The notes beneath the pieces were generated by a model that saw only the letters and a program-made list of their open reading frames with translations, searched no databases and had not been told where the DNA came from. Positions 58,840 through 64,000 of a DNA stretch of 64,000 nucleotides are shown in pieces (positions within the stretch are counted from its first letter, which is position 1; each line of letters opens with the position of its first letter). The translations under genes were made by a program, and so were the position numbers. The stretch comes from Caulobacter sp. NIBR1757. GTDB lineage: Bacteria > Pseudomonadota > Alphaproteobacteria > Caulobacterales > Caulobacteraceae. The DNA lies in NCBI RefSeq assembly GCF_027912495.1, contig NZ_CP115463.1:2131501-2195500 (forward strand), written 5' to 3'.

Positions 58840-59949
<1,110 letters not shown>

Positions 59950-59961
59950 GACCCCACCAAA

Positions 59962-60093
59962 CCGTCATCCCGGAAGCCCCGCAGGGGCTATCCGGGACCC
60001 AGGGGGCGACGTGCGCGGGCGGTTGATATAGCGGAGTTCACGCACCCCCTGGGTCCCGGCTCTCCGCGCTTCGCGCTCCGGCCGGGATGACGG
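59962..60093. repeat. palindromic repeat unit (REP-like)
   Basis: Outer CCGTCATCCCGG (59962-59973) / CCGGGATGACGG (60082-60093) and inner CCGGGACCCAGGGGG (59992-60006) / CCCCCTGGGTCCCGG (60045-60059), both perfect. This is a widely seen alphaproteobacterial unit type (GTCATCCCGG ends). Lies 13 nt after frmA. Confidence 0.85.
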
Positions 60094-60123
60094 AGATAGA
60101 GTTGTTTCCTTGGGGCAGAGGCA

Positions 60124-60155
60124 AAGAGAAAGGGGCCGGCGACCTCGCCGACCCC
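60124..60155 (-). terminator. terminator of the flotillin operon
   Basis: Stem GGGG(C)CGGCG (60132-60141) / CGCCG(A)CCCC (60146-60155). Read on the minus strand it is followed by TTTCTCTTTG. Placed 29 nt after the flotillin stop. Confidence 0.7.
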
Positions 60156-60183
60156 TCCATTCGCCCCAAAAAGGCTGTGCTGC

Positions 60184-62043
60184 TTACGCCTCGGTGTCGT
60201 CCTCGACTTCGGCTTCCTCGACGTCCTCTTCCTCGACGACGACCGGCTCGGCCTTCTTGCGGCGGCGTTTGGCCGGGGCGGCCTCGGCTTCCGGCTCCAG
60301 CAGAACCGGGGCGGGCGTACGCAGGGCGCTGGTCAGGCCGTCGAGCGTCCCGCCGCTGAGGCCCACCTCGGCCATCAGCTGATCCATCAGCGGGGCCTGG
60401 GCGCGGTAGCGCAAGGCGCCGGAGACCACCTGGTCGGCGAGGTTGCCGCCGCCTGACGAGCCGCCCTCGGCGCTCGAGGCGCCGCCGGCCCCGTTCATGC
60501 CGTCCATCTGGACGATACGGATGCTGTCGATGTTCTCCAGCGGCTTCACCGACTCGGCAATGATCCGGTCGAGGTTCTCGATCAGCTTGATGCGGATCTG
60601 CATGGCCACCTGTTCGGCGCTCAGCAGGTTGGCGGCCTCGTTGATCGCCTTGGCGCCGGCGGCGTCGACCGCGTAGCGGACCCGCGAGGCCTCGGCGGCG
60701 GCGCGGACAGCCTCGGCGGCGGCCTCGGCCTCGATCTTGGTCTTGTCGGCGGCGCCGCGGGCGGTCTCGCGCGAGGCCTCGGCCTTGTCGATGGCGGCCA
60801 TCTTCTCGGCTTCGGCGGCCACCTTGATGCCGATGGCGGCGCGTTCAGCCTCCTTCGAGGCCTCGATCAGCTCGATGATCTTCTGGCGGTCGGCGGCCTC
60901 GCGATCCCGCACAGTCTTGACCTGTTCCTCGGCCTGGACGGCCAGGGCCAGGGCCTTGTCGGCCAGGGCCTGGGCGTTGGACTGCTCCTTCGACTTCTCG
61001 GCCACGGCGATGGCGCGGTCCTGTTCGGACAGCTCGATGGCCTTGGCCTTCTCGATGTTCTGGGTCTCGACGGCGCGTTCCTTGGAGATCTCGCGTTCCT
61101 TGAGTTCCTGCTCCATGGCGATGCGCTGCTGGCCGACGTTGCGCTCGGCCTCGATCTTGGCCTGCTCGATCTCCTGCTCGGCGGTGATCTTGGCGCCCTC
61201 GGCCTCGCGGGCCTTTTCGGCCTGCTGGCGGGCGACGTCGGCGGACTGTTCGGCCCGGCGGATCTCGATCTCCCGCTGCTGCTCGAGCTTGGCGTACTCC
61301 TCGTCGCGGGTGATGGTCAGGGTCTGGCGCTGGGCTTCCAGGTTCTTGTTCTTGATCTGGACCTGGGTGTCCTGCTCGATGTCGTTGCGCATCTTCTTGC
61401 GCCGCTCGATCTCCTCGGTCAGCCGCGTCAGGCCTTCGGCGTCGAAGGCGTTGGACGGGTTGAAGTATTCCATCGCTGTCTGGTCGAGGCCGGTCAGCGA
61501 CACGGTTTCCAGCTCCAGGCCGTTCTTCAGCAGGTCCTCGCTGGAGACCTGCTGCACCTTCTGGACGAAATGGGTGCGCTGCTCATGCAGGTCGGTCATG
61601 GTCATCTCGGCGGCGACCGAGCGCAGGGCGTCGACGAACTTGCCCTCGATCAGGTCCTTCAGCTGCTCGGGATGCATGGTCCGCTGGCCAAGCGTCTGGG
61701 CGGCGAAGGCGATCGCGTCGCTGCTCGGCTGCACCCGCACGTAGAACTCGGCCAGCACGTCGACGCGCATGCGGTCCTTGGTGATCAGGGCCTGTTCATT
61801 CTTGCGCTCCACGGCCAGGCGCAGGGTGTTCATGTTGACCGGGATGGTCTCATGCAGGATCGGGATGATCAGCGCCCCGCCGTTCATCACCACCTTCTCG
61901 CCGCCAAAGCCGGTGCGGACGAAGGAGGTCTCCTTTGAGGCGCGCTTGTACAGCCGCGCCACGATGAGGCCGAGGATCAGCAGGCCGACGAGGCCGAGGC
62001 CCGCCAGGATGAGGATTTCGAAGATAGCGGGCAAGCCGGTCAT
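60184..62043 (-). CDS. yqiK: flotillin-like membrane scaffold protein (YqiK-like)
   Basis: A 619-residue SPFH-domain protein organising membrane microdomains. One N-terminal transmembrane helix (about 7-28), SPFH/band-7 domain (about 45-210, LIIPILHETIPVNMNTLRL), a very long Ala/Glu/Lys coiled coil (about 220-480) rich in AEKxxEA repeats, and an unusual tail with a basic KRRRKK block followed by a strongly acidic end (VVVEEEDVEEAEVEDD). Follows yqiJ by 12 nt, the same pair as in E. coli. Confidence 0.92.
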   Translation of the reverse strand: MTGLPAIFEILILAGLGLVGLLILGLIVARLYKRASKETSFVRTGFGGEKVVMNGGALIIPILHETIPVNMNTLRLAVERKNEQALITKDRMRVDVLAEFYVRVQPSSDAIAFAAQTLGQRTMHPEQLKDLIEGKFVDALRSVAAEMTMTDLHEQRTHFVQKVQQVSSEDLLKNGLELETVSLTGLDQTAMEYFNPSNAFDAEGLTRLTEEIERRKKMRNDIEQDTQVQIKNKNLEAQRQTLTITRDEEYAKLEQQREIEIRRAEQSADVARQQAEKAREAEGAKITAEQEIEQAKIEAERNVGQQRIAMEQELKEREISKERAVETQNIEKAKAIELSEQDRAIAVAEKSKEQSNAQALADKALALAVQAEEQVKTVRDREAADRQKIIELIEASKEAERAAIGIKVAAEAEKMAAIDKAEASRETARGAADKTKIEAEAAAEAVRAAAEASRVRYAVDAAGAKAINEAANLLSAEQVAMQIRIKLIENLDRIIAESVKPLENIDSIRIVQMDGMNGAGGASSAEGGSSGGGNLADQVVSGALRYRAQAPLMDQLMAEVGLSGGTLDGLTSALRTPAPVLLEPEAEAAPAKRRRKKAEPVVVEEEDVEEAEVEDDTEA

Positions 62044-62055
62044 GACTGTTCCTGG

Positions 62056-62679
62056 TTAGACAATGGCGTCGCGCAGCGACGGACTGGTATTGGCGATTGC
62101 GAAGAACTTGGCCCCGGCCATGCGGACGAGGATGACGCTGTCCCCCTGCTGAAAGGTCTCGCCCTCGTCGTCGGGCTCGACCATGACGTAGTGGACCTGG
62201 CCGTGCTCGTCGCGGACCCGCGCCTGGGCGGCGCTGCCGACCCGCGCCTCGCCGGTGACGATGGCGGCGACGCGGCCGACCAGGCTGTCGCGGGAGATGG
62301 CGGTGGTCTCGTCCTTGGGCATGATGCGGGAGACCCAGCGGCCGAAGGTGCGGGTGAGGGGCAGGGCGGCCAGCAGGCCGAGCGGGGTGGAGATCCAGAC
62401 CGGGGCGTAGATGCCGGCGATGGCGTGCAGCAGCCGCTGGCCGATCACCCCGATCATGCCGAAGCTGAACAGGAAGACGACGATCAGCATCAGCAGCGGC
62501 AGGCGGCCGATGTTGAGCCAGGACAGGAGGGAGGGACTTTCGCCATCGATGAGGTCGCCGTCGCCATCACTGGACAGGCCGCCGCCCAGCCCGAGCAGTT
62601 CGACCGCCCCGACCAGGATCATCAGCAACAAGGCGGCGACGAAGGGCACATTGCCCCCGGCCGTCAGAAACCCCCACAT
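62056..62679 (-). CDS. yqiJ: YqiJ-like (NfeD-related) membrane protein with OB-fold
   Basis: A 207-residue inner-membrane protein. Three hydrophobic helices (VPFVAALLLMILVGAVELL; LPLLMLIVVFLFSFGMIGV; IYAPVWISTPLGLLAALPL) precede a C-terminal soluble OB-fold (about 130-200, LVGRVAAIVTGEARVGSAAQ). This layout is that of YqiJ/DUF1449 proteins, partners of flotillins. It sits between pspA-like and flotillin genes. Confidence 0.86.
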   Translation of the reverse strand: MWGFLTAGGNVPFVAALLLMILVGAVELLGLGGGLSSDGDGDLIDGESPSLLSWLNIGRLPLLMLIVVFLFSFGMIGVIGQRLLHAIAGIYAPVWISTPLGLLAALPLTRTFGRWVSRIMPKDETTAISRDSLVGRVAAIVTGEARVGSAAQARVRDEHGQVHYVMVEPDDEGETFQQGDSVILVRMAGAKFFAIANTSPSLRDAIV

Positions 62680-62693
62680 CGACGCGGTCCCCC

Positions 62694-63374
62694 TCAGTCT
62701 TTCGCTACCTTAGCACGCAGAGTCGCCAGCCGCTCCTCGACCCGGTTCTGCCTCGACAGTCTGTCCAGTTCGGCGAGGCGGCTGTCCAGCCCACGATCGA
62801 CCCGGCCGACGCCGGAGCCGCCCTCGCGGGCCATGACCCGGTTGAAGGCGGTGGTGGCGTCATCGATGCGGCGGGCGACGCCGGGGCCGTTGCCGCCGAG
62901 GGGGGCGGCTCCGACCTTCTCGGCCGCATATTTGCGGGCGGCGAGCAGCGACTGGAAGCCGTCTTCCATCTCGCGGCGCTTGGCCTGCAGGGCGGCGACA
63001 TAGCCTTCCAGCTCGCGTTCGCGGCTGGCGGTGTCGGCGACGGTGCTTTCCAGCACCGGGACCTGGGCCTCGATGTCGAGCTGGCTTTCGATGGCGGCCT
63101 TGGCGAGGTCCTCGCGGCCCTGGCCCAGCGCGATCTCGACCTGTTCGGACAGGTCCTCATGGCGGCTGCTCTGTTCGGTCAGGCGCTTGCTGGCCAGATG
63201 ACGCGAGGCGATGGCCTTGCCGAGTTCCGTGCGCACCTCGTCGATGGCGGCGTCGATCTCGCGCAGGGTCTGCTGCATGACCGCGTCGGGCAGGGCGCCT
63301 TCGACCTGGTCGATCAGCGCATGAGCGCTGGCGCTGATGATTCGCCCGACGCGGACACCAAGACTGTCAGCCAT
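62694..63374 (-). CDS. pspA: PspA/IM30 family protein
   Basis: Membrane-remodelling, ESCRT-III-like protein. Start MADSLGVRVGRIISASAHAL at 63374 is chosen. The 226 residues are almost wholly helical with a long charged coiled coil (about 40-160) and the N-terminal amphipathic stretch that binds membranes. The MQQTLREIDAAIDEVRTEL segment is PspA-like. Overlaps the upstream gene by 8 nt. No pspF or pspBC is present, so phage-shock regulation must differ. Confidence 0.85.
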   Translation of the reverse strand: MADSLGVRVGRIISASAHALIDQVEGALPDAVMQQTLREIDAAIDEVRTELGKAIASRHLASKRLTEQSSRHEDLSEQVEIALGQGREDLAKAAIESQLDIEAQVPVLESTVADTASRERELEGYVAALQAKRREMEDGFQSLLAARKYAAEKVGAAPLGGNGPGVARRIDDATTAFNRVMAREGGSGVGRVDRGLDSRLAELDRLSRQNRVEERLATLRAKVAKD

Positions 63375-63882
63375 GGGAGGACTCCTTACGGTTGGCATGA
63401 AGGGCGATGAGGTCAGCCAAAGCCGCAATGCGTCGCGAGACCACGGCCGGGTCGTAGGCGGGGGCGGTCGGGGTGACCGACCAGCGCAGCAGCTGTTCGG
63501 CGATCCGGGCGGCGCGATCCACCAGCCGGGCCTCGTAGCGGGCCAGGTCGTGCGGCTCGCCCGAGCGGACCTCGGCCGGGGCGGCCAGGCCGACGGCCAG
63601 CAGTTCCTCGGCCTCGCTGAGCAGGGTGCGGACGACGCCAGAATGGACGCCGGCCCGATCCTCGGCCTCGCGCACCGCCTGGGCCGGCTCGGCCAGCAGG
63701 TCGCGGCTGACGGCGAGGGCGCCGCCGTAGCCTTCCGGCGCCTCGGCCCGCTGGCGCGCCTGACGGATCAGGGCCCTCACCTTGTCGCTGGCCGTGATGG
63801 CGTCGTCGATGCGCAGGGCGGCCAGAAAGACCGCGTCGTCATCCGCCAACCGCACGCTGAGAGGTTTGTTCAAACCGACCAT
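63367..63882 (-). CDS. possible ribbon-helix-helix DNA-binding protein with helical tail, unknown function
   Basis: A 171-residue protein. Residues 7-43 (LSVRLADDDAVFLAALRIDD, then a helix KVRALIRQAR) fit a ribbon-helix-helix motif: a short beta-strand with alternating residues then two helices. The rest (about 45-165) is helical, Ala/Glu/Arg-rich, with a Leu-rich surface. Start ATG 63882. It overlaps pspA by 8 nt and is first in the operon, just downstream of two direct repeats that could be its operator. No known family recognised. Confidence 0.7.
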   Translation of the reverse strand: MVGLNKPLSVRLADDDAVFLAALRIDDAITASDKVRALIRQARQRAEAPEGYGGALAVSRDLLAEPAQAVREAEDRAGVHSGVVRTLLSEAEELLAVGLAAPAEVRSGEPHDLARYEARLVDRAARIAEQLLRWSVTPTAPAYDPAVVSRRIAALADLIALHANRKESSHG

Positions 63883-63894
63883 GCAGCGACGTTA

Positions 63895-63934
63895 ACATAT
63901 GTCAGACGTTTGTATACATTTGTCTTTCGTTTGT
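63895..63934. promoter_or_regulatory. two 19-bp direct repeats, 21-bp period, upstream of the PspA-flotillin operon
   Basis: ACATATGTCAGACGTTTGT (63895-63913) and ACATTTGTCTTTCGTTTGT (63916-63934) agree at 15 of 19 positions. The start-to-start distance is 21 bp, about two DNA turns, as expected for cooperative binding on one DNA face. They are AT-rich in a GC-rich genome and end 13 nt before the start codon at 63882, probably covering the promoter. Confidence 0.6.
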
Positions 63935-63995
63935 GTGCGGCATGGCTTTTTCCCGGTTGGATCGTCTAGGAAGACGCAACGCCCCAGGAGCCGTC

Positions 63996-64000
63996 ATGCT
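63996..64000 (+). CDS. start of a divergent gene (partial)
   Basis: ATG at 63996 preceded by CAGGAG at 6-nt spacing, at the extreme end of the window. Only the first codon and two further bases are present, so the product cannot be identified. It is divergent from the PspA-flotillin operon and shares its promoter gap. Confidence 0.4.

What the first reader, a model, noticed from the sequence alone, without database searches (positions are those of the whole stretch)
60184..63934. RHH-like protein - PspA - YqiJ - flotillin operon with its own direct-repeat operator
Four genes are packed (8-nt overlap, then 14 and 12 nt gaps) and end in a terminator. YqiJ-YqiK and PspA are membrane-repair/scaffold modules, but phage-shock regulators (PspF, PspBC) are absent. 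Instead the first gene encodes a 171-residue protein with a ribbon-helix-helix-like N-terminus and an unknown helical tail, directly behind two 19-bp direct repeats of 21-bp period. This suggests an autoregulated membrane-stress system in which the helical tail might sense PspA or membrane state.
Basis: partly seen in the sequence, partly recalled or inferred. Interest (0 to 1): 0.65.

Follow-up and report, generated by a model that had tools for sequence, protein, structure and literature searches.

The report
Dedicated regulator of a membrane-repair operon
A four-gene bacterial membrane-repair operon (PspA, YqiJ, flotillin) carries its own unnamed, probably DNA-binding regulator as first gene, and the gene order and a likely DNA switch in front of it recur in distant bacteria, which points to a new way of controlling a known kind of envelope-repair system.

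Summary
Window 60184-63882(-) encodes an RHH-like protein, PspA, YqiJ and flotillin (gaps -8, 14, 12 nt). The 171-aa protein has no Pfam match, but its N-terminus matches an RHH_1 profile (hhalign 90.6%; 60 column-shuffled controls at most 7.3%) and its 51-residue model aligns best with AtaR, a DNA-bound RHH protein (Z 5.0, weak). The tail is predicted as four helices. Regulator and pspA are adjacent in 33 of 33 loci examined, all four genes present in 32 (one fetched stretch ends early), in Caulobacteraceae, other genomes of the class and three outside it. In the genus, regulator and yqiJ occur in the same 14 of 75 genomes.

What recurs is a TGT-NN-ACA core among ACA/TGT units spaced 10-11 bp: core in 16 of 24 operons with the regulator, 0 of 14 yqiJ operons without it. 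The conserved 18-mer has one exact match in this genome. Best reading: an operon-specific autoregulator, probably a repressor, in place of PspF. Binding, sign and signal are untested. In print I found CesT/Tir-PspA-flotillin operons and an RHH gene ending another PspA operon type, not this system.

The parts
63370..63882 (-). RHH-like regulator, 171 aa: extended segment about 6-12 and helices 14-22, 31-46 (head), then helices 51-77, 82-99, 110-136, 145-169 (tail)
   Evidence: no Pfam family
62697..63374 (-). PspA/IM30 family protein, 226 aa, start overlaps the regulator's stop by 8 nt
62056..62679 (-). YqiJ (NfeD-like membrane protein), 207 aa
   Evidence: YqiJ_OB 1.9e-30, YqiJ_N 2.1e-22
60184..62043 (-). 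YqiK-type flotillin (SPFH/Band 7), 619 aa
   Evidence: Flot 2.8e-39, Band_7 3.4e-15
63900..63917 (-). proximal operator candidate GTATACAAACGTCTGACA, the part conserved in genus relatives
63895..63934 (-). full candidate operator: four ACANNYGT-like units with spacers 3, 2, 3, i.e. 10-11-bp spacing; contains the core TGTATACA
60118..60183 (-). terminator-like hairpin after the flotillin gene
   Evidence: not listed by the strict scan

Best explanation
A self-contained envelope-maintenance cassette with a dedicated one-component regulator. The first gene makes an RHH-type protein that (inferred) binds, as neighbouring dimers on one face of the DNA, an array of TGT/ACA half-sites spaced 10-11 bp in front of its own operon and represses it. 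PspA, YqiJ and flotillin, made from the same message, repair or organise the inner membrane. The C-terminal helical tail (inferred) is the input domain; the most economical input is the neighbouring PspA or the flotillin complex, in the way E. coli PspA holds PspF (recalled). Shown here by computation: gene order, RHH relationship of the head, predicted helical tail, conserved upstream site and its association with the regulator. Inferred: binding, sign of regulation, signal.
For: Regulator and pspA are neighbours in 33 of 33 loci examined, gap 32 nt or less in 32. Regulator and yqiJ occur in the same 14 of 75 genus genomes; in the class sample the 11 credible regulator genomes are all among the 25 of 385 with yqiJ. 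RHH: hhalign 90.6% over 43 columns, 60 column shuffles at most 7.3%; best structural match of the head is the RHH protein AtaR on DNA, Z 5.0, rmsd 2.8, 47 aligned. Site: 14 of 18 columns of an 18-bp island are invariant in 8 genus genomes, window included, with poorly conserved surroundings; pattern discovery without a preset motif in 13 distant upstream regions puts TGT-N2-ACA first, seen in 9, 0.64 expected, at most 7 for any pattern in 100 shuffled sets; core in 16 of 24 operons with the regulator (10 of 14 distant ones) and 0 of 14 yqiJ operons without it (10/14 against 0/14 gives p 1.5e-4). The conserved 18-mer has its only exact match in the genome here. No PspF passes its cut-off.
Against: No binding, expression or interaction data. 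The exact core is missing in 8 of 24. The paired-octamer score is at chance in L015, L022, L024, L050 and L100 and weak in L004, L026 and L048. The pattern defined from the genus alone gives only modest combined support in the 14 distant regions (Fisher p 0.002; 3 of 14 below 0.05). The octamer test with p 5e-10 was not blind: I had read those sequences first. TGTTGACA and TGTTTACA contain a -35-like hexamer, so part of the conservation may be promoter. Foldseek gave no match with E below 1 for head or full model, and no member passes a Pfam RHH model. One relative (L102) has a divergent tail and a 331-nt gap before pspA.
Confidence: 0.7

Rival explanations
1. The conserved sequence is the operon's promoter (-35 element and flanks) or the site of another factor, and the RHH protein acts elsewhere.
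For: Cores such as TGTTGACA and TGTTTACA include TTGACA/TTTACA. A promoter-like match overlaps the repeats in the window, though on the opposite strand.
Against: The core begins 27 to 76 nt before the start codon in different genomes and is TGTATACA, TGTAGACA or TGTCTACA in several, poor -35 boxes; patterns spaced 10-11 bp beyond the hexamer are also enriched; 0 of 14 yqiJ operons without the regulator have it.
Confidence: 0.15
2. The RHH protein acts as a co-repressor complex with PspA, in the manner of toxin-antitoxin operons (RHH head, partner-binding tail, overlapping second gene), so that loss of free PspA to a damaged membrane releases the operon; or it is an activator. This overlaps with the best explanation and differs in the role of PspA and the sign.
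For: Head-and-tail architecture and tight spacing to pspA, overlapping in 9 of 33, resemble RHH antitoxin operons (recalled); the best fold match of the head is the antitoxin AtaR, with ParD among the next.
Against: No evidence of a complex; the fold search of the full model found no antitoxin-like tail (which barely test this); PspA is not known as a toxin.
Confidence: 0.35
3. The tail senses something unrelated to PspA (a small molecule, redox state or metal) and the operon is induced by that chemical stress; in this genome it lies between formaldehyde-detoxification genes.
For: The operon sits between frmA and fghA here and next to fghA-frmA in two Caulobacter genomes.
Against: fghA was found in no other fetched stretch, and frmA only as distant dehydrogenase matches in L015 and L079, so the link is local. 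I saw no conserved cysteine or histidine cluster in the tail alignment (by eye).
Confidence: 0.15

Closest known systems
CesT/Tir-PspA operons with band-7/flotillin and YqiJ/YuaF (PMC11237479; passages seen)
   Same: PspA with a YqiJ-type membrane protein and a Band_7+flotillin protein in one operon
   Different: the partner dyad there is CesT/Tir-PspA and a novel AAA+ ATPase joins; here the gene before pspA is an RHH-like protein with a helical tail, and the four-gene operon has no ATPase gene
RHH gene at the end of the CesT/Tir-PspA-spermidine-synthase operon (same paper, passage seen)
   Same: RHH regulator linked to a pspA operon
   Different: there it is the last gene, in some cases, of an operon for which the passage names no flotillin; here it is the first gene, overlapping or abutting pspA; whether the two RHH proteins are related was not tested
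E. coli PspF-PspABC (recalled, and introduction passages of PMC11237479)
   Same: dedicated transcription regulator of a pspA operon
   Different: PspF is an NtrC-type AAA+ enhancer-binding activator; none passes its cut-off here
yqiJ-yqiK of E. coli (SPFH2 with NfeD homolog; PMC2636767, passages seen)
   Same: YqiJ and flotillin gene pair
   Different: PspA is not mentioned in that paper's main text (0 occurrences), nor an RHH gene in the passages seen
RHH antitoxins AtaR and ParD (structures 6gts, 8c24)
   Same: predicted RHH head; partner gene directly downstream (antitoxin operon layout recalled)
   Different: tail predicted as four long helices; partner is PspA, not a toxin

Membership tests
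Ribbon-helix-helix (MetJ/Arc) DNA-binding superfamily | strand-helix-helix sequence profile | tested here: met
   hhalign of the head alignment A5 with 29 RHH_1 members from class genomes (30 fetched of the 42 matches listed; one read out of frame and was dropped): 90.6%, 43 columns; 60 column shuffles at most 7.3%, reversed 1.6%
Ribbon-helix-helix (MetJ/Arc) DNA-binding superfamily | RHH fold in a model | tested here: inconclusive
   helices 14-22 and 31-47 after an extended segment, pLDDT 86, monomer only; of 20 chains aligned the best is AtaR 6gts_C Z 5.0, then ParD 8c24_E Z 3.7 tied with plant TCP domains; Foldseek E above 1
Ribbon-helix-helix (MetJ/Arc) DNA-binding superfamily | passes a curated Pfam RHH cut-off | tested here: not met
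   no named RHH family among matches of 19 members scanned singly; DUF6290 is best with E 0.0018, 2 of 19
Ribbon-helix-helix (MetJ/Arc) DNA-binding superfamily | dimer binding DNA through the strand pair | not testable with these tools
   indirect only: S9 and R11 of the presumed strand are invariant in 19 sequences
PspF-PspABC phage-shock system | PspA/IM30 protein | tested here: met
   PF04012 67.4 bits, cut-off 33.9; but far below the NCBIfam equivalog cut-off for PspA (58.6 against 242.95)
PspF-PspABC phage-shock system | PspF activator | tested here: not met
   best of 5 matches 277.4 bits, cut-off 443.55
PspF-PspABC phage-shock system | PspB and PspC | not tested
   not among the four genes; genome not searched
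CesT/Tir-PspA-flotillin-YqiJ operon | PspA with YqiJ and flotillin in one operon | tested here: met
CesT/Tir-PspA-flotillin-YqiJ operon | CesT/Tir-type partner gene beside pspA | tested here: not met
   the gene before pspA has no Pfam match at E up to 5, DUF2170 included, and is predicted all-helical behind the head

The most novel reading that the evidence does not exclude
A PSP system with its own one-component switch: the RHH protein's four-helix tail reads the free or membrane-engaged state of PspA (or flotillin) and sets occupancy of a helically phased TGT/ACA operator, so that PspA controls its own transcription through an RHH repressor instead of the sigma-54 activator PspF.
Probability: 0.35. 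Interest if true: 0.75.

Novelty: new variant of a known kind. Interest (0 to 1): 0.55.

Why it matters
Flotillin-YqiJ operons, with or without PspA, are spread over bacteria and archaea (PMC11237479, passage), and how they are controlled outside the PspF, ClgR and Lia systems is, to my knowledge, largely open. A regulator that keeps company with the operon in every locus examined, together with a short candidate operator, gives a direct handle: it names the switch protein, the DNA site and a testable sensor domain, and could reveal what condition these membrane-repair proteins answer to. The regulator family has no Pfam entry that its members match.

Tried and rejected
Pfam and NCBIfam found no family for the regulator; the NCBIfam MFS hit (E 0.1) is taken as chance. 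Profile searches of solved structures with full length and head gave nothing credible. Fold search with the full model gave only generic helical matches, best Z 6.1, so nothing can be said on the tail's relatives.

A wider regulon: the strict octamer pair has one further match; the conserved 18-mer has one match at 2 mismatches, and at up to 3 mismatches its 8 matches equal the 9 of the reversed-pattern control, so no further target is claimed. Dropped before counting: G333 (E 5e-4, three stops inside, L040) and a match at E 0.41 (L002). G003/L010 and L027 are the same truncated locus, counted once; L003-L009 are genus loci some of which recur among the named L011-L021, and only the latter are in the count of 33.

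Upstream tests used 24 starts: the window, 9 near and 14 distant loci. Near-duplicates or repeats L005-L007, L011, L012, L014, L016-L021, L023 and L025 were left out (printed; L023 and L025 show only a degenerate site); L010, L027 and L028 have no start on the contig. L046 was dropped from the 13-sequence discovery run (same genus as L044). In one search the control regions began at the tblastn match start, which for L087 lies inside the gene; one search repeated them from in-frame start codons, 110 nt and wider regions: still 0 of 14, paired-octamer Fisher p 0.24 (0.42). The gap of L045 starts from an aligned CTC codon; the ATG follows it.
Full report
What is there. On the minus strand of window 60184-63882 four genes follow one another: a 171-aa protein, PspA, YqiJ and a flotillin, with spacings of -8, 14 and 12 nt. 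Pfam supports PspA_IM30, YqiJ_N and YqiJ_OB, Band_7 and Flot; the first protein has no family. A strong hairpin follows the last gene, with an imperfect U tract and not listed by the strict scan. The genome is a single 4.47-Mb contig. Its genus also holds genomes whose contigs equal named Caulobacter records in number of bases (for example G056 contig 33, 150,764 bases, and Caulobacter endophyticus 774), so the window is taken to be from Caulobacter or a close relative.

The first protein. Relatives occur in 18 named Caulobacter and Brevundimonas loci, in 9 of 119 genomes of the family sample, in 14 of 75 of the genus, in 12 of 385 of the class sample, of which one (G333) has stops inside and is dropped, and in 5 of 398 of the phylum sample, three of them outside the class; each of these counts includes the window's own genome except the named loci. 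In 19 aligned members the head has S9, R11, A28, S32, K34, R36 and A42 invariant. Its profile matches 29 RHH_1 members from class genomes with 90.6% probability over 43 columns, while 60 column-shuffled controls stay at or below 7.3%. AlphaFold models (pLDDT 86) show helices 14-22 and 31-46 behind an extended segment, then four long helices. The head alone is matched best by AtaR bound to DNA (Z 5.0, 47 residues, 2.8 A), then by ParD and plant TCP domains at Z 3.7: weak values, but the first is to the right superfamily. Foldseek itself gives no significant match, and no member matches a named Pfam RHH model.

The operon is conserved. tblastn of the four window proteins finds PspA, YqiJ and flotillin in order behind the regulator in all 18 named loci, in all 10 distant loci of the class and in the window's own locus; in L049 the regulator itself was seen only by the profile, and in L027 and L028 its gene is cut by the contig end. 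Of the four further loci of the phylum sample three have all four genes, and L101 has regulator and PspA in a fetched stretch that ends there. That makes 33 loci with regulator and pspA side by side, 32 with all four genes. The gap is at most 20 nt in 30 of 33, with overlap in 9; L048 and L050 have about 30 nt and L102 331 nt. In the genus the regulator and YqiJ_OB are found in the same 14 of 75 genomes. In the class sample 25 of 385 genomes have YqiJ_OB: 11 with the regulator, 5 with PspA-YqiJ-flotillin but no regulator match, 9 with YqiJ-flotillin only within the stretches looked at. In no locus examined was the regulator found without pspA.

The upstream site. In eight genus genomes, window included, an island GTNTACAANCGTNTNACA with 14 of 18 columns invariant ends 17-19 nt before the start codon, within poorly conserved surroundings. 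The window has it at 63900-63917, its only exact match in the genome. A search without preset motif in 13 distant upstream regions ranks TGT-N2-ACA first (9 of 13; expected 0.64; the best pattern of any kind in 100 shuffled sets reached 7), with TGT-N7-TGT, ACA-N7-ACA and TAC-N8-ACA, i.e. 10-11-bp spacing, among the next. The exact core is in 16 of 24 regulator-linked upstream regions (6 of 10 near, 10 of 14 distant) and in 0 of 14 upstream regions of the class-sample yqiJ operons that lack the regulator; with corrected starts and wider regions the control stays at 0 of 14, 10/14 against 0/14 gives p 1.5e-4 by Fisher's exact test (two of the 14 are from one genus), and the paired-octamer score of the controls is at chance, p 0.24. 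The paired ACANNYGT score in the 14 distant regions gives p 5e-10, but I had seen these sequences when I wrote the octamer; the pattern taken from the genus alone gives p 0.002, with 3 of 14 below 0.05. Misses of the exact core: L004, L015, L022, L024, L048, L050, L099, L100; the octamer score is at chance in L015, L022, L024, L050 and L100.

How it probably works. Spacing near one helical turn puts the units on one face of the DNA, as expected for neighbouring RHH dimers (knowledge of RHH repressors, recalled). The array lies 17 to about 80 nt before the start, where a promoter is expected, so repression is the simplest output; this is inferred, no start site is known. PspF is not found above its cut-off in the genome, so the PspF route is unlikely. 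The tail as sensor of PspA or flotillin is suggested only by constant adjacency and by analogy with PspA-PspF; I give it about one in three.

Known or new. The 2024 survey of PSP systems (PMC11237479, passages seen) describes CesT/Tir-PspA-flotillin-YqiJ operons, and an RHH gene as last gene of another PspA operon type in some cases. The 2009 SPFH study (PMC2636767, passages) describes yqiJ-yqiK pairs; PspA does not occur in its main text. Full-text searches for PspA with flotillin and YqiJ, PspA with ribbon-helix-helix and phage shock, flotillin with Caulobacter and PspA, YqiK with YqiJ, ribbon-helix-helix with flotillin, PspA with SPFH, repressor, operon and envelope stress, and YuaF with PspA, flotillin and operon listed no paper that, by title, start of abstract or passages opened, treats an RHH-PspA-YqiJ-flotillin operon. 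In two of the listed papers the RHH mention is only a cited title (PMC8656257, PMC3853003); the remaining listed papers I saw as listings only. The library holds open-licence papers only. I therefore call it a new variant of a known kind.

Genomic setting. In the window the operon lies on the opposite strand between frmA (58840-59949, TIGR02818) and fghA (from 63996, TIGR02821). In two Caulobacter genomes (L011, L014) frmA and fghA are adjacent and the operon lies beyond fghA; in the other fetched stretches no fghA was found, and only distant dehydrogenase matches to frmA in L015 and L079. The flanks thus differ while the regulator stays with the operon, as expected of a unit that moves as a whole (inference).

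Noticed in passing
window 58840-63996 and L011, L014: The operon separates frmA from fghA (glutathione-dependent formaldehyde detoxification), which are adjacent next to the same operon in two other Caulobacter genomes: an insertion or rearrangement.
   Followed up: partly
L085:2600-3802, L086:2891-4051, L088:3006-4163, L089:5231-6385, L090:2710-3858: In 5 of 5 class-sample genomes with PspA-YqiJ-flotillin but no RHH match, the pspA frame is open upstream and carries an extra conserved N-terminal domain of about 165 aa without a convincing Pfam or PDB match, possibly a fused partner in the slot where the RHH gene sits; a resemblance to the N-terminal part of TnpB is a recalled impression only.
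   Followed up: partly
window 63892-63920 (+): A sigma-70-like match TTAACA-17-TACATT on the plus strand, towards fghA, overlaps the repeats (1 found, 0.2 expected); the regulator might also affect fghA.
   Followed up: no
L102 (G603): The most divergent relative matches the profile only over positions 1-100 and has a 331-nt gap before pspA.
   Followed up: no
L101 upstream of the regulator: Two TGTNNACA cores 20 bp apart (TGTCTACA and TGTAGACA) lie in front of this relative from outside the class.
   Followed up: no
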